Virus record (IMG/VR): IMGVR_UViG_3300020180_000014
Location: 27,396 to 91,395 of that record
Origin: a virus
Strand: one strand, 5' to 3'
Length of the DNA stretch: 64,000 nt
Of this stretch, positions 2,723 through 57,909 are shown one piece after another (position 1 is the first letter of the stretch; every line of letters begins with the position of its first letter). Under the pieces are notes generated by a model. It made no database searches. It was given only the letters and a program-made list of their open reading frames with translations, and was not told the origin of the DNA. A program made the translations under genes and the position numbers.

Positions 2723-2745
2723 GTAGAATCTCCTCGGAAGTGGTC

Positions 2746-3355: not shown

Positions 3356-3363
3356 GTTCGCGC

Positions 3364-4183: not shown

Positions 4184-4187
4184 CCAG

Positions 4188-4573: not shown

Positions 4574-4579
4574 CAGGCC

Positions 4580-4846: not shown

Positions 4847-4849
4847 TCC

Positions 4850-5140: not shown

Positions 5141-6135
5141 TTCTTCGTCCAGGTGACAAGGGCCCCGACGTCGAGATGCTGCAGCTCAAGCTGAAGGCGT
5201 GCGGTTACGATCCCGGTGACGTCGACGGCGACTACGGCAAGCTGACGACTGCCGCAGTACTTGCGTTCCAGATCGATCGTCCTGACATCGACGACGACGG
5301 CATCGCCGGTCCACAGACGCTCGGTGCGCTCGACGCAGCCATCGCGAAGCACAAGCGCGACGAGGACACGACGCAGCCGCCGACGCTGTACACGCCGTGC
5401 AATGCACCCACGTGGGCGGCGTTCCAGTTGCTCGTCGAAGCAATCACGAAGAAACCCGTGCGCTACGGACCGGGGCGCGGGTTGTGGCGGAACGATCAGT
5501 TCCTCATCACGTATGGCGCTGGCCAGACGAACGGTACCGTGAAGCAGTGGCCGAACGTCCTCAACCGGACGTATCCGGCGTTCCACTGCACGAGCTTCAC
5601 GAACTTCTTCATGTCGTGGCTGGAGCGTCGCAATCAGGACTTCACGCACGCAGGCAATATCCCATCGCTGTTCGACCTGCTCGAAAGTTCGCCGGACCTG
5701 CACCAAAACCCTGGCGCGGGACCGTGGCGCGGCTTCGGCGACGTGTGCTTCCGCATTCTGCCCGACGGATCCAGCATCCGTCGCATGGGCATCCCGAACA
5801 TCATCGACATCAGGGAGCTGCTCGATCGTCGAGACACGCTCCCGACGTTCCTCGTGTGGGGCCAGTCGACGAAGCTCGCGAACGGCTCGTGGCGGTGGTG
5901 GCACCACACTGGTCTGTTCTGCGTACGCGACCACAAGCTCTTCCGGATCGCCGCCGACGGTACACGTGGACCGAGCGGCTACTCAGCGACGCCGATGCGC
6001 TACATCGAGATCACGACGGCGAACATGTCGCAGTTCTCGAACGTCGCGTACCGCGTGTACGGCGTACGTGCGGCAGCTGACGGCTCATACGGTGATCAGA
6101 GCCAACCGATCGCGCCCATCACGTTCGAGGCGTGA
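5137..6135 (+). CDS. Peptidoglycan-binding lysin with papain-like domain
   Basis: 332 residues. Residues 3-70 form a PG_binding_1 repeat (LRPGDKGPDVEMLQ, DGDYGKLTTAAV, GIAGPQTLGAL). The rest has C151 in FHCTSF and H256/H257 in WWHHTGLF, an arrangement like NlpC/P60 or CHAP cysteine amidases, so the enzyme probably cuts the peptide part of peptidoglycan. Binding domain first and catalytic domain second is usual for endolysins. No signal peptide, so it needs a holin. Catalytic assignment is inferred from residue order only. Confidence 0.75.
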   Translation: MILRPGDKGPDVEMLQLKLKACGYDPGDVDGDYGKLTTAAVLAFQIDRPDIDDDGIAGPQTLGALDAAIAKHKRDEDTTQPPTLYTPCNAPTWAAFQLLVEAITKKPVRYGPGRGLWRNDQFLITYGAGQTNGTVKQWPNVLNRTYPAFHCTSFTNFFMSWLERRNQDFTHAGNIPSLFDLLESSPDLHQNPGAGPWRGFGDVCFRILPDGSSIRRMGIPNIIDIRELLDRRDTLPTFLVWGQSTKLANGSWRWWHHTGLFCVRDHKLFRIAADGTRGPSGYSATPMRYIEITTANMSQFSNVAYRVYGVRAAADGSYGDQSQPIAPITFEA

Positions 6136-6149
6136 TCGCGCACGCGATC
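6134..6149. promoter_or_regulatory. GATC palindrome, copy 4
   Basis: GATCGCGCACGCGATC overlaps the lysin stop codon. No extended -10 abuts it. It sits 45 bases upstream of the sigma70-like promoter of the Ro gene, so it may be an operator on that promoter. Confidence 0.4.
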
Positions 6150-6193
6150 AGCGTCGTGTGCTCGTCGGAGATCGCGTTGCGCGCAAATCGCTC

Positions 6194-6223
6194 TTGACTT
6201 GTCAGGGGCGTGAACGCTAGAAC
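6194..6223 (+). promoter_or_regulatory. Sigma70-like promoter of the Ro block
   Basis: TTGACT at 6194-6199 and TAGAAC at 6218-6223, spaced 18. The surrounding CTCTTGACTTG is nearly repeated ahead of the promoter at 11616, suggesting one promoter class. The leader to the Ro start is about 75 bases and carries GAGGAG at the ribosome site. Confidence 0.55.
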
Positions 6224-6306
6224 GACAGCTGCCCGTACGTGCTGCGTTGTGTCAGCTCGTTACGACTGAAGGCGCGGCGTACAGCCGTGTCCGGCGAGGA
6301 GCTGTC

Positions 6307-8253
6307 ATGGTCAACGTCAACAACCGCGAGAACCTGGGTCCGGCCGAGCGCATCATCGCGTCGGTCCTCACGTACACCGATCACCTCTATCACGGTCGCC
6401 CCGGCGTTGTGGTCGAGGACAAGCGTACCAACATCGGTGTCCGTTGGGAGCCGGTGACGCCGAAGACGGAAGAGATCAACGGCGCCAAGCGCGAGGTCAT
6501 CTACAAGCTGTCGAAGAGCGGCAAGAAGACGCTCAAGACGAAGATCGGCGTGGTCACGCAAGCTGTTGGTACGCATGGCGTGATCAAGCATGTGCGCACG
6601 GACGTGAGCCCAAACCATCCGATCGTCGGTGAGTACCGTGACGCGGGCATCTTCCCCGAAGTCGCAGCGTGGATGTATCGCCAGATCGTCGAGGTCTACA
6701 AGCTCGACAACGAGTTCGCCGCGAAGTGGGCATCGTTCGCGTACGCGCAGGATCACCGTGACCTCAAGGTCGTGCTCGCTGCGTTCATGCTCGTGCAGGC
6801 GCGCCGTGGTGACGCCGTGCTCGACGGCGGTAAGGTCGCGTTCCACGACGATGACTTCCGTGACGTCGGCGAGGCCATGATGCTGATCCGTCGCAAGGAC
6901 GGTAAGGATCTGAACCCGAAGCTGCTGCTCCGCATCCGCGAGGTGCTGATGCTGCCCGAGATTGCAGCGATCAACCTGGAGCTGGGCTTCGGCAAGTCGA
7001 CGCGTCATCCGTTCCTCGGTCGTTGGCCGGAGGTCACGGAGAAGTGGCTGCGCTATCGCGAGGAGAATCGTCCGCTGCTCATCGGTCTCGTCAAGGCCGG
7101 TTTCCGCAAGACGGTCATCCAGCTCGCGCGCCGCGTGCACTACAAGCCGAACACGCAGTGGTTCTTTGAGGAGCTGCGCTGGAAGCAGGTGCAGTCGGAT
7201 ACGGGTCACCGCACGATGGTCGACATCAACATCGTGCAGGCCGAGTCGTGGAACGAGCTGACCGAGGCACAGGTCTGCGAGAAGATCGTCGCCGAGAAGC
7301 CGGACTGGAAGCGCATCACGGGCATGCTGCCGAAGGGCCTCATGACGCGTGCTGTGGTCGCAGCGGCCATCGAGGCGAAGGCGCTCTCGGACCGTGACCT
7401 CGTCATCGCGACGCCGACGCTGGAAGAGCTGGGGCTGCTCGACGTACCGACGATCAAGGCACGTTGGGAGAAGGCGCTCAAGCACGCCGAAGATTCCCGC
7501 GCGGTCAACATCGCGAAGAACGTCCAGTCCAAGGAGGTGAAGGAGAAGCTCGTCGAGGCATCGGACAACGCCATCAAGAAGGCCGTCGAGGAGGTCTCGA
7601 AGAACATCCGCGTCTACTTCTTCGTCGACATCTCGGGCTCGATGAAGTCGTCGATCGAGGCTGCGAAGTTGCACGTCGCGAAGTTTCTCCAGGGCTTTCC
7701 ACCGGACCGCACGCACATCGCCGTGTTCAACACGGTGGGCCGCGAAATCAAGCTCAAGCACGCATCGGCGGTGGGCGTCGCCAACGCGTTCCAGGGTATT
7801 GCTGCGAGCGGTGGCACCGACTATGGCGCGGGCGTGCGCGAGCTGATGCAGTACAAGCCTCTGCCGGAAGAGGATGTGCTGTTCATCTTCGTCGGTGACG
7901 AGGAGGCACACGCGTTCGATCAGCAGGTTGTCGCATCGAGGCTCAACCCGATGGCGTTCGGCTTCGTGAAGACGATCCCGGACAACGGTGCAGCGGCGTA
8001 TCGCCATGGTCTGCACAACGGCGAGAACAACATCGCGGTTCGCGAAACGGCGAACCGTCTGAAGATTCCGTGCTTCATGATCGACGAGAAGACGTTCGAT
8101 GACGCGTACGCGATCCCGCGCACGATCAGGAACCTGATCGCGGCAACGCCCGTCAACATGGCGCGTGTGGCGGCAGTCGCTGCGGCACCGCGTCTGACGT
8201 TTGTCGATCAGATCCTCAAGACGGACCTGCTGAAGAAGCCTGTCTGGGCGTGA
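6307..8253 (+). CDS. Ro60/TROVE-like RNA-binding protein with vWA domain
   Basis: 648 residues from ATG with GAGGAG upstream. The N-terminal two thirds are helical (HEAT-like, as in TROVE); residues about 430-620 form a von Willebrand A domain. MIDAS residues are visible: DISGSM (D441, S443, S445), GGTD (T504) and a late acidic VGDEEA. The stretch leading into the MIDAS (helix, then a short strand) and GGTD resemble bacterial Ro (Rsr) and metazoan Ro60. Ro proteins are ring-shaped and hold misfolded RNA and Y RNA; in Deinococcus Rsr works with an exoribonuclease. Here an exoribonuclease lies 1.9 kb downstream and a tRNA-like RNA cluster 7 kb downstream on the same strand. The family call rests on motifs only. 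Confidence 0.75.
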   Translation: MVNVNNRENLGPAERIIASVLTYTDHLYHGRPGVVVEDKRTNIGVRWEPVTPKTEEINGAKREVIYKLSKSGKKTLKTKIGVVTQAVGTHGVIKHVRTDVSPNHPIVGEYRDAGIFPEVAAWMYRQIVEVYKLDNEFAAKWASFAYAQDHRDLKVVLAAFMLVQARRGDAVLDGGKVAFHDDDFRDVGEAMMLIRRKDGKDLNPKLLLRIREVLMLPEIAAINLELGFGKSTRHPFLGRWPEVTEKWLRYREENRPLLIGLVKAGFRKTVIQLARRVHYKPNTQWFFEELRWKQVQSDTGHRTMVDINIVQAESWNELTEAQVCEKIVAEKPDWKRITGMLPKGLMTRAVVAAAIEAKALSDRDLVIATPTLEELGLLDVPTIKARWEKALKHAEDSRAVNIAKNVQSKEVKEKLVEASDNAIKKAVEEVSKNIRVYFFVDISGSMKSSIEAAKLHVAKFLQGFPPDRTHIAVFNTVGREIKLKHASAVGVANAFQGIAASGGTDYGAGVRELMQYKPLPEEDVLFIFVGDEEAHAFDQQVVASRLNPMAFGFVKTIPDNGAAAYRHGLHNGENNIAVRETANRLKIPCFMIDEKTFDDAYAIPRTIRNLIAATPVNMARVAAVAAAPRLTFVDQILKTDLLKKPVWA

Positions 8254-13151: not shown

Positions 13152-13456
13152 TCGAGACCGTGTTCCATACCGTGGTCTGGACCGAGACACCGACGAACAT
13201 CACGATGTCGCTCGGGCTCGAAGGTGCGCTCACGACCCGTGAAGCAGCCGAACGCGTGGCGACTGCGTACCGTGAGTTTCTGCAAGCCGACTCCGACGAC
13301 GGGCTCGTACAGGCGTACTTCGCGCGTGTGGGCATCCTGGAGATTTCGCGCGCACACCCACAGCTCAAGCACCCCGAACCGCGCGTGGACGTCGACGCGA
13401 TCGTCGCCGAGATCGAAGCGCGAACAGCACGCAAACGCGAAAAGAGGCTCTCGTGA
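13148..13456 (+). CDS. Hypothetical protein
   Basis: 102 residues from ATG overlapping the previous stop; strand-rich start, helical middle, very basic end (RTARKREKRLS). Overlaps the deaminase start by GTGA. Not recognised. Confidence 0.7.
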   Translation: MIETVFHTVVWTETPTNITMSLGLEGALTTREAAERVATAYREFLQADSDDGLVQAYFARVGILEISRAHPQLKHPEPRVDVDAIVAEIEARTARKREKRLS

Positions 13457-13950
13457 GACCGGACTGGGATACGTACTTCATGATCATCGCCGACGCGGTG
13501 TCGATGCGTGCGAGCTGCGACCGTGCGCGCGTTGGTGCGGTGATCGTCGTCGATAAGCGCATCATGTCGACCGGCTACAACGGCGCACCGAGCGGCGTGT
13601 CGTCGTGCGACGAGGTCGGCCATGACCTGGTCGACATCAACGGTCGTCAGAGCTGTGTGCGTGTCATCCACTCTGAGAAGAACGCCATCATCACGGCGGC
13701 GCGGCACGGGGTTCGTCTGGCAGGTGCGACGCTCTACACGACCGCGAGCACGTGCCGCGACTGCTACATGGCGGCGCTGCAGACCGGCATCGTTCGGATC
13801 GTCTACGGCTCCGAGTACATCGGCGGCAAGTCGTTCGATTTCGTTTCGGCGGCGCAAGCGAACGGCATAGAGCTGCGGCACTTACCGATCGCGGATGCGA
13901 TCAAGAACTGGACGCCGCCGCCACACGCGGTCTCTGTCAAGGCGCCATGA
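13453..13950 (+). CDS. Deoxycytidylate deaminase
   Basis: 165 residues from GTG. Zinc site visible: H73 and E75 in HSEKNAI, C101 and C104 in STCRDC; NGAPSG and the large insert between are typical of dCMP deaminase. It converts dCMP to dUMP, feeding the phage thymidylate synthase (ThyX) and thymidylate kinase encoded elsewhere in the window. Length is normal. Confidence 0.92.
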   Translation: MRPDWDTYFMIIADAVSMRASCDRARVGAVIVVDKRIMSTGYNGAPSGVSSCDEVGHDLVDINGRQSCVRVIHSEKNAIITAARHGVRLAGATLYTTASTCRDCYMAALQTGIVRIVYGSEYIGGKSFDFVSAAQANGIELRHLPIADAIKNWTPPPHAVSVKAP

Positions 13951-35564: not shown

Positions 35565-36953
35565 CTAGGCCGTTTTCTCCGTGATCGTCTGCTCGCCGCG
35601 ACGGACACTCCAGTCGTCCGGATCCATGTCGACATGGAGTGCGACCGTGGGGTACTCGTGCTGGAACTTCTTGACCATCGCGTGGATGACCTTGCGCAGG
35701 CTCGGATGCACCGTCTTGCCTGAGCGCAGCTCCAACACGTAGAGCAGTGCTGGTAGCGCGTACGTCACCGAGCACGGCACGCGGAACCCGAGTGCGATGT
35801 AGTACTGGCGCATCACCTCGCGGCTCGGTTCACCGGCACCGAGCTTGATGATCGCGAAGCGCTGTTCGTCGATCAACGTCTCAGCCTCCGCACGCAGGTC
35901 ACCAAGCTGTTCGAGGTACCACGGCTCGAAGCCCCAACTCTCGTCGAGCAGTGGCATGCGGCACACGCCGTTGCGGTGACGCTGGATGTCTCTGAACGAA
36001 CCGAAGTCGAGCAGGAAGTCCCACGTGAACGAGCACAGGTCGCTCATGAAGTGCGGCAGCACGGCGCCCTTGGGGCGCGTCTTGAGCAGCTCGTTGTAGC
36101 GCGTACCGTCCTGCATGATCTCCGAGAGCGGCATCCCCGGGCGGTTCCACGCCGGGTACATCTTCACGCCACCCTCGTCGTGGAAGTGGTGATAACGACG
36201 ATCAACGGAATACGTGAACTGCTTCGCGACGCGATGTTCCCAGTCCTGACGTACGTCGCGCGCGACCTCGTCCTTGTTGCTGACGCCACTGACCGATGCG
36301 AGGTTGAGCCCGAGCCCACTCGACGGATAGCGCTCCTTGAGCTGTCCGCGCAGTGCAACTGCAAGCTGCGAGATCTCGGGCGACGGGTGCGCGTAGAGCC
36401 CTGTCAGGTGATCGCCAGCCTGACGCAGGTTGGTGTGCCACGACAGCTGCGTCGTGATGCCTGCAGGCAGGAACCCGCGCAGGATGTCGAACGTACGGGC
36501 CTTGATGGCACCGTCGTACGCCGTCTGCTTCTCGGTCTCGCGCTTCGGGTACTTCGCGCGCAGGATCTCACCGACGATGTTCTGCTTGCCCGTGTAGAAC
36601 GCCATCCAACGTTCGAGGATCAGACCCGATGCAGCCGTACCGAACGGATCGACGATGTCACGCTTGCTCATGTCGATGTAGCGCGTGCTGGTTTCCTGGC
36701 CGCTGTAGAGCGGCCAGTCCTGGACGGCCTTCGCGGCGAGCAGTGACACGTCCTCGATGAACATGGTCGTCGAGCCGCAGTCGGCGATGCTCTTGTGTGA
36801 GTACCCGACGTAGTACTTCTCCATGAACTTGCTCGAACCGGTGCTCCTGACCTTTTCGAGGTGAACGTCCACGGATTCAGCGCTGCGCGAATACAGCGCT
36901 TGAAGCATCGCCACGTCTTCAGGGTTGAGATCGTCGATAACACGAAGTTTCAT
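35565..36953 (-). CDS. thyX: ThyX-family flavin-dependent thymidylate synthase, two-domain
   Basis: 462 residues from ATG. Second half has QRHRNGV (RHR at 325-327), the FAD/dUMP motif of ThyX; first half has FIEDVS and YSGQETSTRY, like the same region without RHR. So it looks like a tandem ThyX with one degenerate domain, twice the usual 220-250 residues. It would make dTMP from dUMP with folate and FAD. The classical RHRxxS motif is altered after RHR. A copy of its 5' end sits 1.4 kb upstream. Confidence 0.8.
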   Translation of the reverse strand: MKLRVIDDLNPEDVAMLQALYSRSAESVDVHLEKVRSTGSSKFMEKYYVGYSHKSIADCGSTTMFIEDVSLLAAKAVQDWPLYSGQETSTRYIDMSKRDIVDPFGTAASGLILERWMAFYTGKQNIVGEILRAKYPKRETEKQTAYDGAIKARTFDILRGFLPAGITTQLSWHTNLRQAGDHLTGLYAHPSPEISQLAVALRGQLKERYPSSGLGLNLASVSGVSNKDEVARDVRQDWEHRVAKQFTYSVDRRYHHFHDEGGVKMYPAWNRPGMPLSEIMQDGTRYNELLKTRPKGAVLPHFMSDLCSFTWDFLLDFGSFRDIQRHRNGVCRMPLLDESWGFEPWYLEQLGDLRAEAETLIDEQRFAIIKLGAGEPSREVMRQYYIALGFRVPCSVTYALPALLYVLELRSGKTVHPSLRKVIHAMVKKFQHEYPTVALHVDMDPDDWSVRRGEQTITEKTA

Positions 36954-36955
36954 GA

Positions 36956-38215
36956 TTAGTCCTTCACGCACTGCCACGTGGCGCCATGGCTGATGAAACG
37001 GATGGTTGATTCAGACACCGCGAAGCGACGCGCCAGTGCGGCCTTCGAAGTGCCGTCGACGAGAGCAGCGCGAATCTGTTGAACGGCTTCTTCGGTCAGC
37101 TTGGCGCGACCGTTCAGCGTCCCACGACGCGGCGCTTTGTGAACACCGTTGGCGGCGCCGCGTGCCGCACGTTCAGGGTGTTTGCGTAGACCGTGAGCGT
37201 TCCCACGCGCGAGACGTTCCGGTGATTGCCGCGCCCAGTGGCCGTCTCCGCGAGGACGCGCTTCTGGACACGTCCGAGAGCCGCTACGGTCGCCTGTTGG
37301 CCCGCGGACATGATGTTTCAGAACGCGCTTGATGCCTACTGCTGAACCGGCAACGGTAGCTGCTACCGCGTCCTTAGCCGCGTCACGAAACGCGCGCTGC
37401 ACGACGAGATCACGTGGCGGCAACATGTTCATGATGCGCGGTCGCCGTTGCACATCCGGTGATGCAGGCGTGACTGATCCAGGTTGTGCCTCGTTCAGGT
37501 ACGCAAGCGTATTCGCGAGGAACCGCATGCTGAGCAAGTTGATACCGACATGGAACGGATCCAGGTGCGTCGGGATGTTCTCTTGCATCTTGCGCAGGTT
37601 GGCTTCCTCAAAATCGAGAACGTCCTCGACGACCTGTGCGAGTTCCGTCTGTGAAAGTCGCCCAAACAGTGCGTCACCTTTCATGCGCGCAGCCAACTCG
37701 GGGCGCATACCGTCACGGTCCATCTTCGCGGTACGAAGATCCGCTGCAGCCTGTTTGGGTGTCACCCGTTCGAAGTAACTGGCCGTCCCTGGCTTATCAG
37801 CGTTCGACATCCACGAATAGGCGGTCGTGTCATAGTCCGCAACGATGAGGATCTGACCTTTCGTGACGAAGAGGTATGACGATTCCGGTTCGATGGTCCC
37901 CGGTAGCGGAAGATACGCGCGCGGCACTTGAACGATGAACGCTGCGTGAGGAAGGTGCTCCCAGTCGATCTCGGGTGCGCCGGTCAACGCAAACAACGCT
38001 GCCAGGCTGTGCGACAAGTTGTAGACGATCTCACCGGCTTGGACCCATCGATCCGCGAAGACGTTTTCCAACTGCGCCATGCGATGCGACTCCATAGACC
38101 AGTTGACTCGTTGAGCCATCGCGGCGTGAAGCTGCGCCACCTTCAGCGCGTCGTGCTTGATGTGACCGAAGACCGTGCCGATCTTCCGCAGGTTGTCGAA
38201 CATTTTTGTGCTCAT
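36956..38215 (-). CDS. Unknown protein with homing-type DNA-binding tail
   Basis: 419 residues. The first 290 residues are helical and unrecognised. From about 320 come short repeats (ERLARGNAHGLRKHPERAARG) and a helix-turn-helix (TEEAVQQIRAALVDG, KAALARRFAVSESTIRF) of the kind that ends HNH homing endonucleases, but no HNH motif is seen. It lies between a truncated copy of thyX and the full thyX, as if inserted there. Confidence 0.7.
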   Translation of the reverse strand: MSTKMFDNLRKIGTVFGHIKHDALKVAQLHAAMAQRVNWSMESHRMAQLENVFADRWVQAGEIVYNLSHSLAALFALTGAPEIDWEHLPHAAFIVQVPRAYLPLPGTIEPESSYLFVTKGQILIVADYDTTAYSWMSNADKPGTASYFERVTPKQAAADLRTAKMDRDGMRPELAARMKGDALFGRLSQTELAQVVEDVLDFEEANLRKMQENIPTHLDPFHVGINLLSMRFLANTLAYLNEAQPGSVTPASPDVQRRPRIMNMLPPRDLVVQRAFRDAAKDAVAATVAGSAVGIKRVLKHHVRGPTGDRSGSRTCPEARPRGDGHWARQSPERLARGNAHGLRKHPERAARGAANGVHKAPRRGTLNGRAKLTEEAVQQIRAALVDGTSKAALARRFAVSESTIRFISHGATWQCVKD

Positions 38216-45304: not shown

Positions 45305-45865
45305 ATGGCCGAATTTGTCGATTACATCAGCAACATGGGTCTCAACGACCCGAACCTCACCCCACACGACGGTCGCAACCAGCGCGTCGAGCCCGGCACC
45401 TACGACTGGGAGGTCACCAAGGCGATCTTCGATCAGTCGAAGAAGGGCAACCGCACGCTGCGTCTGACCGCGCAGGTGGCCACCGAGGACAGCCCGATGA
45501 AGGGTCGTTCGCTCGTGGGTACGTACGTGATCTCCGAGGATGACTTCGCGCGTCGTCGCATGAAGGCGATCGTCGAGGCAACCGGCGTGGAGATCGACGC
45601 AGCGGGCGGTCTCTCGAAGGACGCGTTCGTGGGCACGCGCTTCACGGCCGATGTCGTCGTCGACACGTTCGACGACATCGACTCGAAGACGGGCCAGCCG
45701 GTCACCAAGGACTTCACGAAGTGGATCGGCGAGCGTACCTACGAGGGTGCGGCACCGGTTGCTTCGACGAAGCCTGCGGCGGCTCCGGCGGCGGCTGGAA
45801 CGGCTCCGCGCCGTCCAGCTGCTCCGGCGCCCACCGGCAACGGTCGTCCGACCGCGCCCCGCTAG
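45305..45865 (+). CDS. SSB-like (DUF669-type) protein
   Basis: 186 residues. Strand-rich core with VEPGTYDWEVTKA, NRTLRLTAQVATED and GRSLVGTYVISE as in DUF669-type single-strand binding proteins, then an Ala/Pro-rich tail. Position after Sak4 supports it. OB fold not proven by sequence reading. Confidence 0.75.
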   Translation: MAEFVDYISNMGLNDPNLTPHDGRNQRVEPGTYDWEVTKAIFDQSKKGNRTLRLTAQVATEDSPMKGRSLVGTYVISEDDFARRRMKAIVEATGVEIDAAGGLSKDAFVGTRFTADVVVDTFDDIDSKTGQPVTKDFTKWIGERTYEGAAPVASTKPAAAPAAAGTAPRRPAAPAPTGNGRPTAPR

Positions 45866-46008
45866 TCGTGCAACGCCAGCAACGTGCTGGCGACTGCGGT
45901 TGTTTGCTAACAGTTGTCGCGCGCGACGCGACAACGCGGGCTAGCTGCTCGCACCGTGGTCCAACAGCGTCGACAGCAACAGTCCAACCAGACGGAGTTA
46001 CCGCACCC
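45866..46008 (+). promoter_or_regulatory. Leader with two strong hairpins before RNR
   Basis: 143 bases without a gene. CGCCAGCA-ACG-TGCTGGCG (45874-45892) and GTTGTCGCG-CGCGA-CGCGACAAC (45913-45935) are perfect stems of 8 and 9 bp. Neither has a T-run. They may attenuate transcription or protect RNA ends. Confidence 0.55.
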
Positions 46009-48428
<2,420 letters not shown>

Positions 48429-48435
<7 letters not shown>

Positions 48436-48866
48436 GCACACCGTGTACGGTTTGGCCGGGCGGCAAGGACCGTGACGGGTACGGAATCACGTCCCGTCGT
48501 GGGCAGTGGATGCGTGCACATCGCGCAGCCTGGTTCGACGTGCACGGCAAAATTCCGGAAGGTCTTCTGGTGCTGCACGAGTGTGACAATCCATCTTACA
48601 TCAACGTCGAACACCTCAAGCTCGGCACGCATCTCGACAACACACACGACGCGATCTCACGAGGACGTCGCGCCCGGTTTTCGGGTCGTCGTTTCGATTG
48701 CACAGGTGTTCGAGGCGAACGGCACCCACACTCGAAGGTCACGGACAAACAGCGCGGAGAGATTTTCACGCTGTACTACAGCAAGCGACTTTCACAGACC
48801 GAGATCGCCAAGCGGTACAACATCGGGCAGACCGGGATCTCGAAGATTCTTCGCACGTGGCACTAG
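48429..48866 (+). CDS. HNH homing endonuclease
   Basis: 145 residues from ATG overlapping the RNR stop. AHRAAWFDVHGKIP, LVLHECDNPSYINVEHL and LGTHLDN are the HNH_3 pattern; a helix-turn-helix tail (TEIAKRYNIGQTGISKI) follows. More AT-rich than its neighbours, consistent with a free-standing homing gene next to RNR, a common site. Confidence 0.88.
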
Positions 48867-48930
48867 TTGACACGCCGCTGAGCTAGGCGGCGTGCCGGTT
48901 CCACAACTCGTCAGTAGGGAGACGAGCAAC

Positions 48931-50634
48931 ATGACAAAACGCCACCCACTTCTAGGGGCAGACTGCCCGATCGACGTCGACAAGCTCATCGAGTCGAAGC
49001 TGCTGATCCAAGCGAACAGCGGCGCTGGCAAGAGCTGGTCGATCCGTCGTATCGCCGAGCAGACCTACGGGAAGGCTCAGCAGATCATCATCGATCACGA
49101 CGGCGAGTACCACACACTGCGTGAACAGTACGACTACGTGCTCGCGGGCAAGAACGGCGACTGTCCCGCTGACATCAAGAGCGCTGCGCTACTAGCGCGG
49201 CGGCTCCTGGAATTGCGCGTCAGCGTGATCATCGACATCTACGAGCTGGGTACGCAGCGCGCCGAGTTCGTCAAGCGCTTCCTCGAAGCGCTCGTCAACG
49301 CGCCTCGCGACCTCTGGCACTCGGTGATCGTCATCCTCGACGAGGCGCACCTGTACTGCCCGGAGAAGGGCAGTGCAGTCAGCTCCGACGCAGTCAAGAA
49401 CCTCATGGCGCTCGGCCGCAAGCGCGGGTTCTGCGGCGTGCTGGCAACCCAGCGCATCGCCAAGCTCGACAAGGATGCCGCTGCCGAGTGCAACAACAAG
49501 TTGATCGGCCGGTCTGCGCTCGACGTCGACATGAAGCGCGCCGCTGACGAGCTTGGCTTCACGACGAAGGAGGATGTTCGCTCCCTGCGCACGCTCAAGG
49601 CTGGCGAGTTCTATGTGTTCGGTCCGGCCTTCACCGACACCGTTACGCAGATCCAAGTCGGCGCTGTGAAGACGACGCACCTTCGCGCTGGGCAACGCGC
49701 AGCCCCACCTGTTCCACCCAGTGCCGAGGTGAAGAAGATGCTCAGCAAGCTCGCTGATCTCCCGCACGAGGCTGCAGAAGAGGCTAGGACGATCGTCGAG
49801 CTGCAGCTGCAGGTGAAGCAACTGCGTGGCGCGCTCAAGAAAGCTGAGAGCGCGCAGCCTGCATCTGTCGAGAAAATCGTCGAGAAGCCTGCACTCAAGG
49901 ACAGCGATATCAAGCGTATCGACGCAATCGCCAGCAAAGCACTCGCGCTCAGCGAAAAGCTGGCACCGCACATTGAGTCGTTTGTGGCACATGCGGGAAG
50001 TCTCAAGGCACACGTACTGAGCCTGCAGACGTTCACGTTGAGTCAGAATCGTGCACCCAACGGCATGCGCCCGATCGATCCGCTGATCAAGGGCACGGCG
50101 CAGCAGCTGCGAGATCGTAATCGCGTGCGGCTCAAGCCTGCACCGCTGCGTGCACCGGTCGACAATGACAGCGAGCTACCCAAGGGTGAGGTCGCGACGT
50201 TGCGTGCGCTGATCCAGTTCCCCAAGGGTTTGCAACGCTCGCAGTTGACCGTCTTGACCGGCTACAAGCGGAGCACGCGGGACGCGTACATCGCACGCTT
50301 GCGCGAGAAGGGGCTTGTCGAGACCAACCTCGTGTACGTCGTCGCGACCGACGCCGGTCGCGCAGCGTTGCCGAACGCCGAGCCGTTGCCGACGGGCGAG
50401 GCGCTACAGGAGTTCTGGTACCGCGAGCTGCCCGAGGGCGAGTGTGCGATCTTGAAGTACCTCGTCGGTCAGTACCCGGACAACGTCGAGCGTGGGACGA
50501 TCGAAGAGGCCACGGGCTACAAGCGCTCGACACGTGACGCGTACATCTCGCGCTTGACCGCGAAGGAACTCGTGAGTGACACCGGGCGCGGGACGGTCAA
50601 GGCAAGCGAGACGCTGTTCGAGGTCGATGCGTGA
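48931..50634 (+). CDS. HerA-like ATPase with tandem winged helices
   Basis: 567 residues from ATG at 48931. Walker A NSGAGKS (29-35), Walker B VILDEAH, and ATQRIAKLDKD fit the HerA/FtsK superfamily. The C-terminal 150 residues contain two related winged helices (GYKRSTRDAYIARLREKGLV and GYKRSTRDAYISRLTAKELV). Likely translocates DNA in repair or processing with nucleases. Confidence 0.82.
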   Translation: MTKRHPLLGADCPIDVDKLIESKLLIQANSGAGKSWSIRRIAEQTYGKAQQIIIDHDGEYHTLREQYDYVLAGKNGDCPADIKSAALLARRLLELRVSVIIDIYELGTQRAEFVKRFLEALVNAPRDLWHSVIVILDEAHLYCPEKGSAVSSDAVKNLMALGRKRGFCGVLATQRIAKLDKDAAAECNNKLIGRSALDVDMKRAADELGFTTKEDVRSLRTLKAGEFYVFGPAFTDTVTQIQVGAVKTTHLRAGQRAAPPVPPSAEVKKMLSKLADLPHEAAEEARTIVELQLQVKQLRGALKKAESAQPASVEKIVEKPALKDSDIKRIDAIASKALALSEKLAPHIESFVAHAGSLKAHVLSLQTFTLSQNRAPNGMRPIDPLIKGTAQQLRDRNRVRLKPAPLRAPVDNDSELPKGEVATLRALIQFPKGLQRSQLTVLTGYKRSTRDAYIARLREKGLVETNLVYVVATDAGRAALPNAEPLPTGEALQEFWYRELPEGECAILKYLVGQYPDNVERGTIEEATGYKRSTRDAYISRLTAKELVSDTGRGTVKASETLFEVDA

Positions 50635-53249
50635 CAGCTGTCGCTGAAGTCGCGCCCGCTGCGCCCGTCGAGGAAGTGTGGGAGCCGCCGCTGATCATCC
50701 GTGGCAAGACGGACGGTGCACAGTGCGCGATGTGTCCGTTCGCATCGAACGGCAAGCCACGCAATCCTGTCGTCGCTGAGGGTCCCGAGCGTCCGATCTG
50801 GATCGTCGTTGGTGAGGGTCCAGGCCACAACGAGGCGATCCAAGGTCGTCCGTTCGTCGGACAGACCGGACGCATGGTCAACGATGCGCTCGTGCGCATC
50901 AAGACGCGGCGTGAATCGGTCTGGATCACCAACGCGACCTTGTGCCAGCCACCGAGCGGTGCCACTGATACCCAGAAGAAGGACGCGCGCCGTTGCTGTG
51001 CGCCGCGTCTGCAGAAAGAGCTGTCCGAGTTCCCGGGCCGTCCGATCGCGGCGCTCGGTGCGATCGCAGCACAGGGCTTCTGCGGTGAGAAGTTCTCGAT
51101 CACGCAGATGGCAGGCGCGCTGCACAGCGTCGACTTCGACGGTACGGGTCCGCGCGACGTCATCCCGACCACACATCCCGCAGCGATTCTTCGCGGTGGT
51201 ACGGGTGGCGGTGGCGGTGCGCACACGAGCGACCTCGGCTTCTGGTCGCTGATGTACGACCTGCAGAAGGTCAACCTGCTCGCGCGCAACGTCGACATCC
51301 GATTCACCGACGACATCGAGTACGAGACGGCTGATCCCGTCCGTGCCGAGAAGCTCGTCGAGGAGATGGTCCGCGACATTCGGCGCAAGCGCGAGTTCGC
51401 GTGCGACACCGAAACGTACGTCGACGATCCGAAGCAGCACTCTGCCCTGCAGGCAGCGCACGCCAAGCTCAACGCGATCGGGCTCGCGACGGTCGACCGT
51501 GCCATCAGCGTCGCGTGGCAGATCCTGACGTCACGCGCGAAGCGTTTGATCGGCGCAGTGCTCTCCGACAGTGGTATCACGAAGTGGTTCCACAACGGCA
51601 TCTACGACGTCCCGGTGCTCAACCGACACGGGTTCGTCGTCGAGGGTCCACGCGAAGACACGCTGCTGATGCACCACAGCGCGTTCCCAGGCTTGCCGCA
51701 CGACCTGCAGCGCGTGACGACGCAGTTCCACGCGATCACACCGTGGAAGGCCGAGTACCGTCACGGGCAAGGCACGCTCGAAGATCTCCTGCCGTACAAC
51801 GCGCGCGACACCCTCGCGACGATGCGCGACGCAGCACCGCTGACCATCGCAATCAAGAGATCGAACTCGGAGAAGACGTACGAGGTCGACAAGGCGATGG
51901 CACGTGCCGCCGCGATCATGCACGTCAAAGGTGTGCCGATCGACCGCGAGGTTAACGAGCAGTTGCGCGTCGGCTTCAAGGCACACATCGACCGCACGCG
52001 TAGCGAGCTGAACGGCAAAGTCTTCGAGCCCGGCATCAACAACCGATTCCGCGAGCGGCTCGCACTTGAACAGGCACGTCGTCCACGCAAGCACGACTCT
52101 CTCGATCTCGACGAGCGCATCACCAAGCGCATGGCCGAGATGGACAACCCGAAGAAGCCGTTCAAGTTCATGTTGGACTCCGGCGATCACGTCGTCTCGT
52201 TCCTAAAGGCTTGCGGTGTCCCACTGTCGATCCAGACGGCCACCGGCAAGATCTCGACGAAGAAGGACATCCTAGAGAGCTTCGTGCACTACCCCGAGGT
52301 ACGCGCACTCCTGACCTATCGCGAGAACGCCAAGCTGCTGTCGACGTTCGTCGAGCGCATGTTCACGCGCCACTACGGCGAGAAAACAGTTTACGGCTTC
52401 GCAGACGACGACGACCGTGTGCACCCCCGCTGGAGTGTTCACAAGATCACCGGTCGCTGGGGTTCCGAAGCGCCGGGCTCGCAGAACTGGCCCAAGGCCG
52501 ACAAGAAGAAGGGTCGTCCGAACCTGCGCAGCCAGGTCATTGCGCGCCACGGTCGTGCACTTGTTGCATTCGACGCCAAGCAGCTCGAAGCGCGCATCAT
52601 CGCGCTGCTCTCGGCCGATCCGTTCCTCCTCGACATCTTCAACAGCGACAAGGACATTCACAGCGAGTTCGCCCGCATCGTGTGGCCAGACTTCGATACG
52701 CGCGCTGTCGACGAACGCAAAGTTCTTCGCGACATGATCAAGCGGCCCGAGTACGGCGCGTTCTACGGCGGTACTGTTGACACGCTGTGGAAGGCCGTCG
52801 TCCGCGACTACCCGAACGTCACGATCGGAATGATCGGCAAGATGGTCGCGACGATGAAAGTGAAGATGCCCGCCGTCACGGCATGGCACCAGCGCATGAT
52901 GCGTACCGCCGACGAAGTCGGCGAAGTTCGCAGCGCGATTCTTGGTCGTCGTCGCTGCTTCCCGCTCAAGCAGTTCGAGCTGTCCGAGGTCGTCAACTTC
53001 CCGGTCCAGTCGACCGGTGCCGACATCATCAACCTGGGCCTGATGGACGTCATGCCGCGCCTGCCCGCTGACGCGTTCCCGATCCTGCAGATCCACGACG
53101 CTGTCGTGTTCGAGTGCGACGAGGACGATCAGGAGCTGGTGAAGGAAATCGTCGTGAAGAGCTTCACGCGCGAGGTCACACACGAAGGCATCACGGTGAA
53201 TTTCCCCGTCGATGCGCGCAGCGGCAAATCTTGGGCAGAGGTGAACTGA
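50631..53249 (+). CDS. Family A DNA polymerase fused to uracil-DNA glycosylase
   Basis: 872 residues from GTG. Residues 20-230: family 4-like uracil-DNA glycosylase with C32, C35, C105 and C122/C123 for a 4Fe-4S cluster, GEGPGHNE (61-68) and THPAAIL. About 250-420: 3'-5' exonuclease (CDTETY, NGIYDVP). C-terminal half: PolA motifs A (FDAKQLEARI), B (RDMIKRPEYGAFYGG) and C (IHDAVVFE; Ala replaces the usual Glu). The replicative polymerase of the phage. UDG-polymerase fusions are uncommon; one like it is described in phage SPO1, from memory. Confidence 0.9.
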   Translation: MTAVAEVAPAAPVEEVWEPPLIIRGKTDGAQCAMCPFASNGKPRNPVVAEGPERPIWIVVGEGPGHNEAIQGRPFVGQTGRMVNDALVRIKTRRESVWITNATLCQPPSGATDTQKKDARRCCAPRLQKELSEFPGRPIAALGAIAAQGFCGEKFSITQMAGALHSVDFDGTGPRDVIPTTHPAAILRGGTGGGGGAHTSDLGFWSLMYDLQKVNLLARNVDIRFTDDIEYETADPVRAEKLVEEMVRDIRRKREFACDTETYVDDPKQHSALQAAHAKLNAIGLATVDRAISVAWQILTSRAKRLIGAVLSDSGITKWFHNGIYDVPVLNRHGFVVEGPREDTLLMHHSAFPGLPHDLQRVTTQFHAITPWKAEYRHGQGTLEDLLPYNARDTLATMRDAAPLTIAIKRSNSEKTYEVDKAMARAAAIMHVKGVPIDREVNEQLRVGFKAHIDRTRSELNGKVFEPGINNRFRERLALEQARRPRKHDSLDLDERITKRMAEMDNPKKPFKFMLDSGDHVVSFLKACGVPLSIQTATGKISTKKDILESFVHYPEVRALLTYRENAKLLSTFVERMFTRHYGEKTVYGFADDDDRVHPRWSVHKITGRWGSEAPGSQNWPKADKKKGRPNLRSQVIARHGRALVAFDAKQLEARIIALLSADPFLLDIFNSDKDIHSEFARIVWPDFDTRAVDERKVLRDMIKRPEYGAFYGGTVDTLWKAVVRDYPNVTIGMIGKMVATMKVKMPAVTAWHQRMMRTADEVGEVRSAILGRRRCFPLKQFELSEVVNFPVQSTGADIINLGLMDVMPRLPADAFPILQIHDAVVFECDEDDQELVKEIVVKSFTREVTHEGITVNFPVDARSGKSWAEVN

Positions 53250-53812
53250 TGAAGACTGACGAAGAGGCACGCGCAGCGATCGAGAAGGCGCACCGTGACG
53301 AGGCTACGTTCGCTATCTACCTGCGCAGCTACAGCCTCAACGTCAAGGAAAAATCACACGGCTTCCGTAAATCAATCGATGACATCGATGCGTACATACA
53401 CGACATCGACTACGAAATCGAAGGATGTACGTGTCAGTACAAGCACCGAACCAAGTGGCTTTGCGCGTTCACGCACGGCAACAACCCGATCGTCGACGAG
53501 AAAGTGAAAGCAGACCGAACGCCGGTCGATTTCTACATCCTTCGGTTCGCTGACGGCATCATCGTTGCGCCGTACGAACCTGCGACGTGGGGAATCGAAA
53601 CGATCCGTGATCGCAAGGATCGCGCGACGAAAGACTTCTACACCGTAAATCCAGCGGACTGTTTTCCGTTGCAAATCTGGATCGAGTCGTTCCTGTCAGA
53701 ACCAACAGGTCTTTTTCTAGGGGAGCATCATGAGCAAGAGCAACATCGAAGAGCTATTCGAGGACCAGACAGGGGCGCTCGCGCGAGCGATCCCCGGCTA
53801 CGAACGGCGTGA
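53249..53812 (+). CDS. Hypothetical protein overlapping helicase start
   Basis: 187 residues from ATG in a TGATG overlap. AT-richer than neighbours. Cys pair in GCTCQY plus a later Cys. The last 27 residues are read in a second frame over the start of the next gene (83 bases), so the true end could be earlier by frameshift, or the overlap is real. Confidence 0.65.
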   Translation: MKTDEEARAAIEKAHRDEATFAIYLRSYSLNVKEKSHGFRKSIDDIDAYIHDIDYEIEGCTCQYKHRTKWLCAFTHGNNPIVDEKVKADRTPVDFYILRFADGIIVAPYEPATWGIETIRDRKDRATKDFYTVNPADCFPLQIWIESFLSEPTGLFLGEHHEQEQHRRAIRGPDRGARASDPRLRTA

Positions 53813-55700
53813 AGGCCAGGTGCAGCTCGCGCGCGACATCTGGAACACCGCCAACAAGGGCGGCATCCTGCTTGCCGAGGGTCCGACAGGCATCGGCAAG
53901 TCGTTCGCGTACGCGATCCCGGCCATCATTCGCGCCGTCGCGACCGGAACACCGTCGCTGATCGTGACCGCGAACAAGGCGCTGCAGGATCAGCTCGCCG
54001 AGAAAGACCTGCCGTTGCTCGCCGAGATTCTCCAGGACACCGAAGCGAAGGGCTTCAAGTTCAAGCTGCTCAAGGGCCGTTCGAACTACATCTGCCAGCG
54101 TGAGCTGATGCTCCGCGACGCACGCAGCGTCAACTGGCCCTCCGGCAGCGAGAACGAAGGCGACGCACTTTCCGCGTGGGTGGCTGCGCCACCATGTTCT
54201 GGCGATCGCAACGACGCACCTGTGGTGAGCGACCAGACCTGGCGTGCGGTGTCGATCACAGGTGACGACTGTGACCACAGCGCGTGCGTGCACTACCAGA
54301 CGTGTTTCGCTGAGAACGCTGCTGAGGAGGCCGAGCAGGCGCACGTCGTGATCATCAACTACGACCTGTTCTACTCGAAGCTGCAGCACAGCAACGATCC
54401 GTTCTGGAGCAAGTTCGGCTTCGTCGTGTTCGACGAGGCGCACGAGGCCGCTGCGATCGCACGGCGGTGCTTCGGTACCGAGATCAGTGAGTGGGGCATT
54501 CGCCGTCTCGCAACGGCCGTGAGTGACAAGGTCGGCGACCGTGATCTCGCGAAGGCACTGCGCAACGTCGCCGCGCCCGTGTTCGAAAAGATCGCCGACT
54601 ACGCGCTGCAGTACCGCACCAACGGTCGCTTGAAAGACCCGGGCTTCGTCAATGTCGACGACCTCTGCGACACGCTCCGCGAAGTTGTCGCTGCGGCGGC
54701 GGGCGGCTGTGGCTCTTGTGTCGTCGACGAGATCTGCGCTGCGTGCAACAGCCGCAAGAAGATCCAGGAGCGGGCAACGGAGATGTCCGAGAACATCCGC
54801 GCGTTCGTCGATCAGGTCGATGACATGACCGCGTACTGGCTTGACAAGCCGATGGACACAGCGCGCGTCACAGGTGCGACGATCAAGCTGTGTGCGGCGC
54901 CGTACCACGTCGGTGACGTGCTCAAGAAGCTCGTATTCGAGCGGTATCCGTCGATCGTGTGTGTGTCGGCGACACTCGCAGCCGGTGGCAGCTTCGACTT
55001 CATTCGTGGCGAGCTGGGCCTGACCGATCCCGTGATGTCGGCGAAGACACAGGTCACGCGTGTCGCGAGCCCGTTCGACTTCGCCAAGCAGGCCAGGTTC
55101 GTCATCCCGCTCGGTATTCCGTTCCCGACCGGTGAGAACGAGGCCATCTTCGATGTGGCCGCGTCCAAGGCACTGATCCAGATCATCCAGGAGTGCAAGG
55201 GCCGCACGCTCGCGCTGTTCACGTCGTGGCGTCGGCTCAAGCACATTGCCGAGCAGATCCGCGATCACATCGACTACCCACTGCTCGTGCAGGGTGATGC
55301 GCCGAACAAGATGCTAGCGCAAATGTTCCGTGAGCAGACCGACAGCGTGCTGCTCGCGACGCGCAGCTTCTGGATGGGCCTCGATGTCTCGGGCGAGTCG
55401 CTGTCGTGCCTCGTGATCGACAAGCTGCCGTTCGAGAGCTTCGATGACCCGTTCATCGACATGATGAAGGAGAAGCACCCGGACACGTTCTACGAGGACT
55501 TCTACGTGCCGCGCGCGACGATCACGCTCGCGCAAGGTGCCGGGCGTCTCATCCGCAGTGTCACCGACCACGGCGTGTTCGTGCTACTTGACCAGCGCAT
55601 CAAGACCAAGCGCTACGGTCGGCAGTTTCTCGCGAGCTTGCCGTTCAAGGGCTACTCCCAAGATCTTGCCGACGCCGGTAAGTTTCTCGCAGATCGTTAA
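53730..55700 (+). CDS. DinG/XPD-like SF2 helicase
   Basis: 656 residues with AGGGGAGC before the ATG. EGPTGIGKS (50-58), VFDEAHE, and GAGRLIRS motifs, plus spaced Cys (ICQRE, CSGDRN, DDCDH, YQTCF) that fit the iron-sulfur cluster domain of DinG. Unwinds DNA or R-loops during replication and repair. Confidence 0.87.
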   Translation: MSKSNIEELFEDQTGALARAIPGYERREGQVQLARDIWNTANKGGILLAEGPTGIGKSFAYAIPAIIRAVATGTPSLIVTANKALQDQLAEKDLPLLAEILQDTEAKGFKFKLLKGRSNYICQRELMLRDARSVNWPSGSENEGDALSAWVAAPPCSGDRNDAPVVSDQTWRAVSITGDDCDHSACVHYQTCFAENAAEEAEQAHVVIINYDLFYSKLQHSNDPFWSKFGFVVFDEAHEAAAIARRCFGTEISEWGIRRLATAVSDKVGDRDLAKALRNVAAPVFEKIADYALQYRTNGRLKDPGFVNVDDLCDTLREVVAAAAGGCGSCVVDEICAACNSRKKIQERATEMSENIRAFVDQVDDMTAYWLDKPMDTARVTGATIKLCAAPYHVGDVLKKLVFERYPSIVCVSATLAAGGSFDFIRGELGLTDPVMSAKTQVTRVASPFDFAKQARFVIPLGIPFPTGENEAIFDVAASKALIQIIQECKGRTLALFTSWRRLKHIAEQIRDHIDYPLLVQGDAPNKMLAQMFREQTDSVLLATRSFWMGLDVSGESLSCLVIDKLPFESFDDPFIDMMKEKHPDTFYEDFYVPRATITLAQGAGRLIRSVTDHGVFVLLDQRIKTKRYGRQFLASLPFKGYSQDLADAGKFLADR

Positions 55701-55714: not shown

Positions 55715-55933
55715 ATGGCGATGACCCCGACCAAGTATGAGTACACCCCGCCCGTCCAGATTGCCGGTGTGGCAAAGGACTTCACCACCAAGATCGAGGT
55801 CGCGCAGACCGCGGGAGGCTGGACCGCGACGCTGCACATCACGTCGAGTCCGCTCAGCACCGCAGGTGAGGTGCAGAGCAAGCTCGCGCAGCACCTGATC
55901 CGTCTCGCCGAGTCGCTGGGCAGTACCAAGTGA
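55715..55933 (+). CDS. Small hypothetical protein
   Basis: 72 residues from ATG at 55715 after AGGAG (an ATG at 55709 is in frame). Strand-rich then a helix (EVQSKLAQHLIRLAESL). Co-translated with thymidylate kinase by GTGA overlap. Confidence 0.7.
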   Translation: MAMTPTKYEYTPPVQIAGVAKDFTTKIEVAQTAGGWTATLHITSSPLSTAGEVQSKLAQHLIRLAESLGSTK

Positions 55934-56553
55934 GAGGCAAGTACGTCGTCTTCGAAGGCCCGGACGGTAGCGGCAAGACGACGCTCGCGAAGAAGTTCGC
56001 CGAGCTGCTTCGGTGCATCGAAGCAGACCATCGCGAGATGGCGTTCCCGAGCCGCGAGTCTGCTGTCGGATCGTTGATCCGCGATGTGTTCGAGGGCAAA
56101 GCCAACGTCAGCCCCACCGCCATGATGTGGCTGTTCGTTGCCGAGGGCAAAGACATGGAGCCGCAGATCTCACGTGCTGTCGGGGCTGGCAAATGGATCA
56201 TCTGCGATCGGCACACGATGGTCTCGGGCTACATCTACCAAGGTGAAGTCCATGGCCTCGAACGCGTAAGTCAGGTGACGGCGCCCGCGCACTTCACGGT
56301 GCCCGATCGCATCTATCTCGTCGACGTGCCCGCAGAGGTCGCGATGGAGCGTCGCAAGGCGCGCGGTGAAGCGCGCAACCTGCTCTACGAGCCGGAACAG
56401 CTCGATCGTCTCGATCGGATGTGCAAGGCCTACCGCGAGCTTCGTTCGCGTTTCGCAACCAGCGTGATCATCGACGGTACCAAGCCGTTCGAGCAGAACT
56501 TGCGCTGGATGTGGCAGGATCTCGGGCTTCCCGGCCAACCGCCTCTGCCATGA
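55930..56553 (+). CDS. tmk: Thymidylate kinase
   Basis: 207 residues from GTG. P-loop FEGPDGSGKTT (8-18), DRHTMVSGYIYQG (DRY/DRH motif) and a LID-type basic region. Phosphorylates dTMP to dTDP, the step after ThyX. Length is normal. Confidence 0.92.
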   Translation: MRGKYVVFEGPDGSGKTTLAKKFAELLRCIEADHREMAFPSRESAVGSLIRDVFEGKANVSPTAMMWLFVAEGKDMEPQISRAVGAGKWIICDRHTMVSGYIYQGEVHGLERVSQVTAPAHFTVPDRIYLVDVPAEVAMERRKARGEARNLLYEPEQLDRLDRMCKAYRELRSRFATSVIIDGTKPFEQNLRWMWQDLGLPGQPPLP

Positions 56554-56994: not shown

Positions 56995-57909
56995 ATGCCA
57001 TCGACTGACATCGATACTGAGACCGCCAACAACCATGCACCGCAGACCGAGCTACCGGAGACTGAACCGTTGCTACCACCGCGCGCACACTGCACGCCAC
57101 CGATCAAGTGGGTCGGCGGCAAGCGCTGGCTGATTCCGACGATCGCACCATCGATCTACGAACGTCTTGGTGCAACACAGGGCCGCTACATCGAACCGTT
57201 CATGGGCTCAGCCGCTGTTGCGCTCGACCTTGGATTGCCCGGCATGGTTCTCAGCGACGTCTGCAAGCCACTCGTTGCGATGTACACGACGATCCGCAAA
57301 AGCGCGGAAGCCGTCGCGTGGGCGCTCAAGACACTCGTCGAGAAAGGCACCGACAAGGACCGCTACCTTGCGGTGCGTGCATCGGAGCCGACGAGCGTCG
57401 TGTTCGCAGCAGCGCGCTTCATCTACCTCAACAAGTTCGGCTTCAACGGACTCTACCGCGAGAACAGTAAGGGCAAGTTCAACGTCCCGCACGGCGGTGA
57501 TCGTTCGAGCGCGGGTATCCCCGGGCTCGACGCACTTCACGCAGTCGCGAAAGCGCTCAAGGACACTGAGATCCGCGTCGCGGACTTCCGACAGACGATC
57601 CTGCGCGCTACGGCAGGCGACGTGCTCTACGTCGACTCGCCGTACTACGAGACGTTCAGCGACTACACGGCCGGTGGTTTCACCGACGAAGATCACCTCG
57701 CGCTGTCGTTGGCACTCAAAGAAGCGCACGAGCGCGGTGCGGTGTTCATCGCATCGAACAGTGACCATGAGCGGGTTCGCGAGCTGTACACGTGGGCCAC
57801 CATCGTGCCGGTGTCCGAGCGTCATGCGGTCGGCGCGACCGCAGAGCGGCGTGGTATGAAGGCAGCCGTGCTGATTCTGTCCGACGACACGATCCTGCGA
57901 GGAGCTTGA
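56995..57909 (+). CDS. Dam-type (D12) adenine-N6 methyltransferase
   Basis: 304 residues from ATG. IKWVGGKRW (37-45, motif I), EPFMGSAAV, KFGFNGLYREN and DSPYYETF (214-221, in place of DPPY) define the D12 class. Dam enzymes methylate GATC, which is frequent in this genome and ends every palindrome promoter, so methylation could affect their use. Specificity is not proven. Confidence 0.88.
   Translation: MPSTDIDTETANNHAPQTELPETEPLLPPRAHCTPPIKWVGGKRWLIPTIAPSIYERLGATQGRYIEPFMGSAAVALDLGLPGMVLSDVCKPLVAMYTTIRKSAEAVAWALKTLVEKGTDKDRYLAVRASEPTSVVFAAARFIYLNKFGFNGLYRENSKGKFNVPHGGDRSSAGIPGLDALHAVAKALKDTEIRVADFRQTILRATAGDVLYVDSPYYETFSDYTAGGFTDEDHLALSLALKEAHERGAVFIASNSDHERVRELYTWATIVPVSERHAVGATAERRGMKAAVLILSDDTILRGA

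What the first reader, a model, noticed from the sequence alone, without database searches (positions are those of the whole stretch)
50631..53249. Uracil-DNA glycosylase fused to replicative polymerase
A 4Fe-4S family UDG domain with intact GEGPG and HPA motifs precedes exonuclease and PolA domains. The phage also makes dUMP via dCMP deaminase and dTMP via ThyX, so uracil may be removed or sensed at the fork. In the polymerase motif C the usual Glu after HD is Ala.
Basis: partly seen in the sequence, partly recalled or inferred. Interest (0 to 1): 0.6.

Follow-up and report, generated by a model that had tools for sequence, protein, structure and literature searches.

The report
Glycosylase-fused phage DNA polymerase
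The phage copies its DNA with one protein that joins a uracil-removing repair domain to a proofreading polymerase; such fusions turn out to be common in phages, and what the repair domain does there is still untested.

Summary
Window 50631-53249 (+) encodes an 872-aa protein with an N-terminal Fe-S family-4-like uracil-DNA glycosylase (UDG) domain, a 3'-5' exonuclease and a family A polymerase. AlphaFold gives a confident full-length model (pLDDT 91.7). The fusion is not new: SPO1 gp31 carries a degenerate UDG-like domain, PDB 9qhs is the Thermus phage phiLo member, and hundreds of viral contigs match. The four Fe-S cysteines and the uracil pocket (E62, E68, F75, N101, H182, R188) are kept. 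The motif-3 Asn (Tth N89) is Gly here and never Asn in the close clade. In Tth that loss costs only 6- to 9-fold in rate, so weakened activity is likelier than none. The 'missing Glu' after HD is ordinary in these fused polymerases. A polymerase-anchored sample shows the pocket intact in 51 of 79 fusions and degenerate in 25; a tree needs at least 11 changes, while the Fe-S cysteines nearly always stay. The domain therefore likely has a role beyond catalysis, as in the poxvirus holoenzyme. Homologous inteins sit in the UDG domain at a cluster cysteine.

The parts
50631..53249 (+). UDG-exonuclease-PolA fusion protein, 872 aa, GTG start overlapping the upstream gene's TGA
50712..51200 (+). Family-4-like Fe-S uracil-DNA glycosylase domain (residues about 28-190)
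   Evidence: PF03167 E 6.7e-18; best PDB match Tth UDGa 1ui0 E 3.3e-22
50724..50735 (+). Fe-S cysteines C32 and C35 (CxxC)
   Evidence: invariant in the clade, aligned with Tth C13/C16
50811..50855 (+). Motif A GEGPG (61-65) with E62, E68 and F75 = Tth E41, E47, F54
50931..50960 (+). Motif 3 region: N101 (Tth N80), C105 (Tth C84), and G110 in place of the catalytic Asn (Tth N89); in L011-L013 and L120 an intein sits directly before the residue matching C105
50997..50999 (+). Fe-S cysteine C123 (Tth C100)
51174..51194 (+). Motif B HPAAILR (182-188): H182 = Tth H155, R188 = Tth R161
51333..51830 (+). 3'-5' exonuclease domain with D259/E261, N322/D326, Y389/D393
   Evidence: PF01612 E 1.1e-5; motif residues conserved
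52107..53246 (+). Family A polymerase domain; motif A D648, motif B R700/K704/Y712, motif C H822-D823-A824
   Evidence: PF00476 E 3.9e-48; Klenow/Bst fold matches; HDA invariant in A3
13453..13950 (+). dCMP deaminase (source of dUMP)
   Evidence: PF00383 E 7e-22
35565..36977 (-). Divergent two-part ThyX-like thymidylate synthase, 470 aa
   Evidence: PF02511 E 2.6e-16; sequence
45721..48435 (+). Ribonucleotide reductase large chain
   Evidence: PF02867 E 1.7e-125
48892..50634 (+). HerA-like (DUF87) ATPase gene that overlaps the polymerase start
   Evidence: PF01935 E 2.1e-11
53730..55700 (+). Superfamily 2 helicase downstream in the same replication cluster
   Evidence: PF13307 E 1.5e-37
55930..56553 (+). 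Thymidylate kinase
   Evidence: PF02223 E 1.7e-28

Best explanation
This is the phage's replicative family A polymerase with a tethered Fe-S family-4-like UDG domain that binds uracil in DNA and most likely still excises it, at a reduced rate. Shown by sequence or model: domain order, complete cluster cysteines, complete uracil pocket, intact proofreading and polymerase residues, purifying selection, loss of the water-positioning Asn. Inferred: uracil from cytosine deamination or dUTP incorporation is found in cis by the polymerase-bound domain (no PF00692 dUTPase or MazG was found in the 91-kb partial record) and is removed, or marked by stalling, for repair. The tethered domain probably also adds DNA binding or processivity, since in many relatives it is kept after the pocket is lost.
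For: Pfam and PDB matches to family-4 UDG. Pocket residues invariant in the clade while neighbouring residues vary. In A2, ten fusions of which six share only 21-28% identity with the window, the invariant UDG columns are E62, P64, E68, G77, G80, N101, G143, A146, H182, P183. In 70 other fusions N80 is 70/70, F54 69/70 and H155 67/70, with an HP motif found in the remaining three. UDG dN/dS is 0.09-0.20, close to exo and pol. Tth N89A keeps a sixth to a ninth of the wild-type k2 (PMC5387724). dCMP deaminase and ThyX present; no trimeric dUTPase or MazG found. A homologous intein family sits in the UDG motif in L011 and L120. Confident full-length model.
Against: No activity was measured. The motif-3 Asn is absent and its position varies (G/S/D) in the clade. 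No AP endonuclease was found in the partial record, so repair after excision would depend on the host. E62/E68 conservation in the sample is biased by the search pattern. In the wider clade L122, L123 and L136 have lost N80 yet keep the domain. An abasic site made in single-stranded template ahead of the polymerase would be harmful.
Confidence: 0.5

Rival explanations
1. The UDG domain serves mainly as a structural, DNA-binding or processivity module of the polymerase, as UDG D4/E4 does in the poxvirus holoenzyme; glycosylase activity is a side function or vestigial.
For: In a sample found through polymerase motifs, 25 of 79 fusions have a degenerate pocket, yet the cluster cysteines are kept in 74-78 of 79. 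The intact/degenerate state needs 14 changes on the polymerase tree, at least 11 forced by starred branches. SPO1 gp31 keeps the domain with N80 changed to Ser and the cysteines lost. Poxvirus precedent: UDG is part of the holoenzyme, is active in it and acts like a clamp (PMC10115419). The motif-3 Asn is lost in the window's clade.
Against: In the window's clade every uracil-contacting residue is invariant, which a pure scaffold would not require.
Confidence: 0.3
2. The domain is a sensor: it captures uracil in the template and stalls synthesis, like the read-ahead pocket of archaeal family B polymerases, with little or no excision.
For: Pocket kept but water-positioning Asn lost. Read-ahead stalling exists in archaeal polymerases (PMC3950489).
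Against: The leaving-group residue H182, the strongest catalytic residue in Tth UDGa, is kept. N89A in Tth still excises. No stalling data.
Confidence: 0.15
3. The UDG domain attacks host or rival DNA, or guards against foreign uracil-DNA, rather than serving the phage's own fork.
For: Only the general fact that glycosylases can act on any uracil-DNA.
Against: It is covalently part of the only family A polymerase found in the record, inside a replication gene cluster.
Confidence: 0.03

Closest known systems
Thermus phage phiLo DNA polymerase (PDB 9qhs, GenBank AYJ74010.1)
   Same: N-terminal Fe-S UDG domain with GEAPG, pocket Asn and HPS; family A polymerase C-terminal
   Different: 1175 aa, about 21% identical to the window protein in the MAFFT alignment; no paper on 9qhs was found in the library
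Bacillus phage SPO1 gp31 and relatives (LysYB1, EalM-132)
   Same: UDG-like N-terminal domain on a family A polymerase
   Different: SPO1 and EalM-132 have lost the Fe-S cysteines; SPO1, EalM-132 and LysYB1 have altered pockets; SPO1's TS-family gene is annotated as dUMP hydroxymethylase
Caudoviricetes sp. vir526 DNA polymerase (DBA35002.1)
   Same: Best annotated full-length hit (97% of query, 24% identity), all family-4 residues
   Different: Keeps the motif-3 Asn; motif C is HDQ
Thermus thermophilus UDGa (1ui0/1ui1)
   Same: Best family-4 UDG match; cysteines and pocket residues aligned
   Different: Free-standing enzyme; has N89 where the window has Gly
Poxvirus D4/E4 UDG in the polymerase holoenzyme
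   Same: UDG working as part of a replicative polymerase (PMC10115419)
   Different: Separate subunit, joined through A20/A22 to a family B polymerase
UdgX
   Same: Fe-S, close to family 4
   Different: GEQPG and the KRRIH R-loop with covalent His are absent here

Membership tests
Family 4 UDG (UDGa) | Motif A GE[AG]PG | tested here: met
   GEGPG at 61-65
Family 4 UDG (UDGa) | Motif B HPx...R | tested here: met
   HPAAILR 182-188
Family 4 UDG (UDGa) | Four Fe-S cysteines | tested here: met
   C32, C35, C105, C123 aligned with Tth C13, C16, C84, C100; cluster itself not observed
Family 4 UDG (UDGa) | Uracil pocket E41, E47, F54, N80, H155 | tested here: met
   E62, E68, F75, N101, H182
Family 4 UDG (UDGa) | Motif-3 catalytic Asn (typical, not one of the class-defining motifs A and B) | tested here: not met
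   G110; G/S/D in the close clade; hence 'family-4-like'
Family 4 UDG (UDGa) | Uracil excision activity | not testable with these tools
   Needs protein
UdgX | GEQPG and KRRIH R-loop | tested here: not met
   GEGPG; CQPPSGATD without R-loop
UDG-PolA phage polymerase fusions | UDG domain N-terminal to 3'-5' exo and PolA in one ORF | tested here: met
Family A DNA polymerase | Motifs A, B and C with the two catalytic Asp | tested here: met
   D648, R700/K704/Y712, H822-D823
Family A DNA polymerase | Glu after HD in motif C (Pol I type) | tested here: not met
   A824; HDA/HDS is usual in fused phage polymerases, so this is not treated as excluding family A
DEDDy 3'-5' exonuclease | DxE, NxxxD, YxxxD | tested here: met
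   D259/E261, N322/D326, Y389/D393

The most novel reading that the evidence does not exclude
In UDG-PolA phage polymerases the long-lived function of the UDG fold is DNA binding or processivity (convergent with poxvirus D4), with uracil chemistry an optional add-on that has been switched off many times; the window's clade is an intermediate that keeps the uracil pocket but has lost the water-positioning Asn.
Probability: 0.35. Interest if true: 0.7.

Novelty: new member of a known kind. Interest (0 to 1): 0.42.

Why it matters
A glycosylase tied to a replicative polymerase should make dangerous abasic sites at the fork, so either the activity is controlled in cis or the domain does something else. 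The alignments give a ready set for testing this: intact, motif-3-less and fully degenerate versions, some in nearly identical polymerases (L188 versus L185). It would also bear on why poxviruses built a UDG into their polymerase.

Tried and rejected
Clean rule 'degenerate UDG = modified-thymine phage': rejected as a rule. A TS-family gene (HMMs built from the SPO1, LysYB1, PMBT14, Serbin, Zuko and Shrew genes) lies in the flanks of 20/25 degenerate but also 28/51 intact loci (Fisher p 0.04, not corrected for relatedness, unequal flank lengths). Gene-content difference that would explain L185/L180 degeneracy: none evident in the flanks. UdgX identity: rejected (no R-loop, no GEQPG). Search for the close clade in bacterial genomes: 16 pattern matches, none a relative, so no host inference. 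First motif regex for ThyX and dCMP deaminase found nothing; family searches then found both. Foldseek against PDB listed Klenow/Bst polymerases first and did not show 9qhs in the top 50; the phiLo link rests on sequence. The Aravind and Koonin 2000 paper is not held; that it notes the SPO1 fusion is memory only. An inactive UDG in the window: not favoured because all other pocket residues are kept.
Full report
What is there. The ORF at 50631-53249 (+) is a single open frame of 872 codons with coding-type GC3. Its GTG start overlaps the stop of a HerA-like ATPase gene, so the two are probably translationally coupled. Pfam places UDG at 50-189, a 3'-5' exonuclease at 237-399 and DNA_pol_A at 493-870. 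It carries the only PF00476 and the only PF03167 match in the 91,395-base viral record that contains the window. AlphaFold2 with 50 homologues gave pLDDT 91.7 and pTM 0.89; only residues 1-16 and 191-197 form low-confidence segments. Foldseek matched the exonuclease-polymerase part to Klenow/Bst-type enzymes.

The UDG domain. Its nearest solved relatives are Thermus thermophilus UDGa and Thermotoga TM0511. Mapped on Tth UDGa it has all four Fe-S cysteines (C32, C35, C105, C123) and the uracil pocket E62, G63, E68, F75, N101, H182, R188 = Tth E41, G42, E47, F54, N80, H155, R161. The motif-3 Asn that is proposed to position the attacking water in Tth (N89) is G110. In the close clade (L002-L013) this position is G, S or D, never Asn. 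Relatives further out have Y, K, E or gaps, and some still have Asn by inspection of the sequences (L118, L127, L128), so the loss is probably derived. In Tth, N89A lowers k2 by 'almost 6-fold' in the text and about 9-fold by Table 1, and k2/Km about 7-fold; H155S costs over three orders of magnitude (PMC5387724). Activity is thus predicted to be weakened, not abolished. This was not measured.

Selection. In the clade alignment the pocket residues and cysteines are invariant while neighbours vary. In A2, ten fusions of which six share 21-28% identity with the window, the invariant UDG columns are E62, P64, E68, G77, G80, N101, G143, A146, H182, P183. In the 50-row set G61, E62, P64, G65, E68, F75, G77, G80, N101, C105, C123, G143, H182, P183 are invariant. 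The loci, which make up much of that set, were found with the pattern [VI]GE[AG]PGx[NED]E, so E62 and E68 there are selected by the search, while N101, F75, H182 and the cysteines are not. dN/dS of the UDG domain against six close relatives is 0.09-0.20, similar to exonuclease (0.07-0.19) and polymerase (0.08-0.16).

How common and how variable. A scan with polymerase motifs of the window's subfamily again gave loci that nearly all carry the UDG domain. A second polymerase-anchored scan gave 79 fusions. By the criterion E41, N80, H155 and F/Y54, 51 have an intact pocket, 25 are degenerate and 3 are partial; each of the four cysteine positions is kept in 74-78 of the 79. On a tree of the polymerase part the state needs 14 changes, at least 11 forced by well-supported branches; it is a quick tree with some long branches, and a few rows were classed by eye. 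A striking pair is L188 (intact) and L185 (N80Q, N89D, H155D), 89% identical in exonuclease and polymerase but 71% in the UDG part. Within the window's wider clade L122, L123 and L136 have lost N80. The Fe-S fold is thus often kept after the pocket is lost, which points to a second, non-catalytic role. Poxviruses give a precedent: the UDG subunit is part of the holoenzyme, is active in it and acts like a clamp (PMC10115419).

The polymerase. Proofreading motifs and catalytic aspartates are intact. The residue after HD in motif C is Ala. This is the rule here: HDA/HDS in 52 of 75 and 78 of 79 sampled fusions, and HDA is invariant in the subfamily alignment. It is not a special lesion.

Uracil economy. 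The window encodes dCMP deaminase (13453-13950, +), a divergent 470-aa ThyX-like protein (35565-36977, -), ribonucleotide reductase and thymidylate kinase. No trimeric dUTPase, MazG or AP endonuclease of the families searched was found in the record, but the record is partial: records of close relatives reach 195,792 and 221,422 bases. Of 19 related records 2 have a dUTPase and 8 a Thy1 match, 7 of them above the family cut-off. The context fits a phage with dUMP in its pool, but does not prove uracil in its DNA.

Inteins. L011, L012 and L013 carry a 348-aa intein inside the UDG domain directly before the third cluster cysteine; L120, with only 46% polymerase identity to the window, carries a 61% identical intein at the same point. 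Others sit in polymerase motifs: L010, L032/L033, L081. Inteins usually settle in conserved functional motifs (general knowledge), so this is mild evidence that the UDG motif is functionally constrained.

Relation to what is known. UDG-PolA fusion is an established phage architecture: SPO1 gp31 has a UDG-like N-terminus, several family-4-like PDB chains are named 'Phage SPO1 DNA polymerase-related protein', and PDB 9qhs is the phiLo polymerase (2587 bits). No paper describing the biochemistry of such a fusion was found in the library; the library is incomplete. The window protein is a new member of this kind, with the motif-3 Asn replaced.

Verdict. Identity is near certain. That the domain binds and slowly excises uracil is the best single reading (0.5); scaffold/processivity (0.3) and stalling sensor (0.15) remain open. 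Interest lies less in this one gene than in the test set that the family offers.

Noticed in passing
L011:10001-13636, L012, L013, L120 (ORF 2005-7173): Homologous inteins of about 350 aa (61% identical, LAGLIDADG-like) inserted in the UDG domain exactly before the third Fe-S cysteine.
   Followed up: partly
L010:10001-13072; L032 and L033 ORF 5923-10797; L081 ORF 2725-6546: Inteins in polymerase motifs: mini-intein in motif B (L010), two in L032/L033, one in motif A (L081).
   Followed up: partly
L185 versus L188 (polymerase ORFs): Nearly identical polymerases, one with an intact and one with a triple-replaced UDG pocket (N80Q, N89D, H155D); cause unknown.
   Followed up: partly
L061, L074, L079, L085, L093, L096, L097, L099, L101: Fused UDG domains without the full set of Fe-S cysteines that still keep E41, E47, F54, N80 and H155, most also the motif-3 Asn.
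   Followed up: no
window 35565-36977 (-): ThyX-like protein of two apparent repeats in which the usual RHRxxSxNExSxRY motif looks split: SGQETSTRY in the first half, QRHR in the second.
   Followed up: partly
window 48354-48866 (+): HNH endonuclease with a sigma-70 region 4-like helix-turn-helix between the ribonucleotide reductase and HerA-like genes, probably a homing gene.
   Followed up: no
L144-L222 flanks; L019, L141, L142, L143: Many UDG-PolA genes of a second clade lie beside dCMP deaminase and a very divergent thymidylate-synthase-family gene, possibly a dUMP hydroxymethylase.
   Followed up: partly
window 56995-57909 (+): D12-class adenine DNA methyltransferase downstream of thymidylate kinase.
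   Followed up: no
L075, L100, L102, L046: Matches broken over more than one reading frame; introns, frameshifts or sequence errors not resolved.
   Followed up: no
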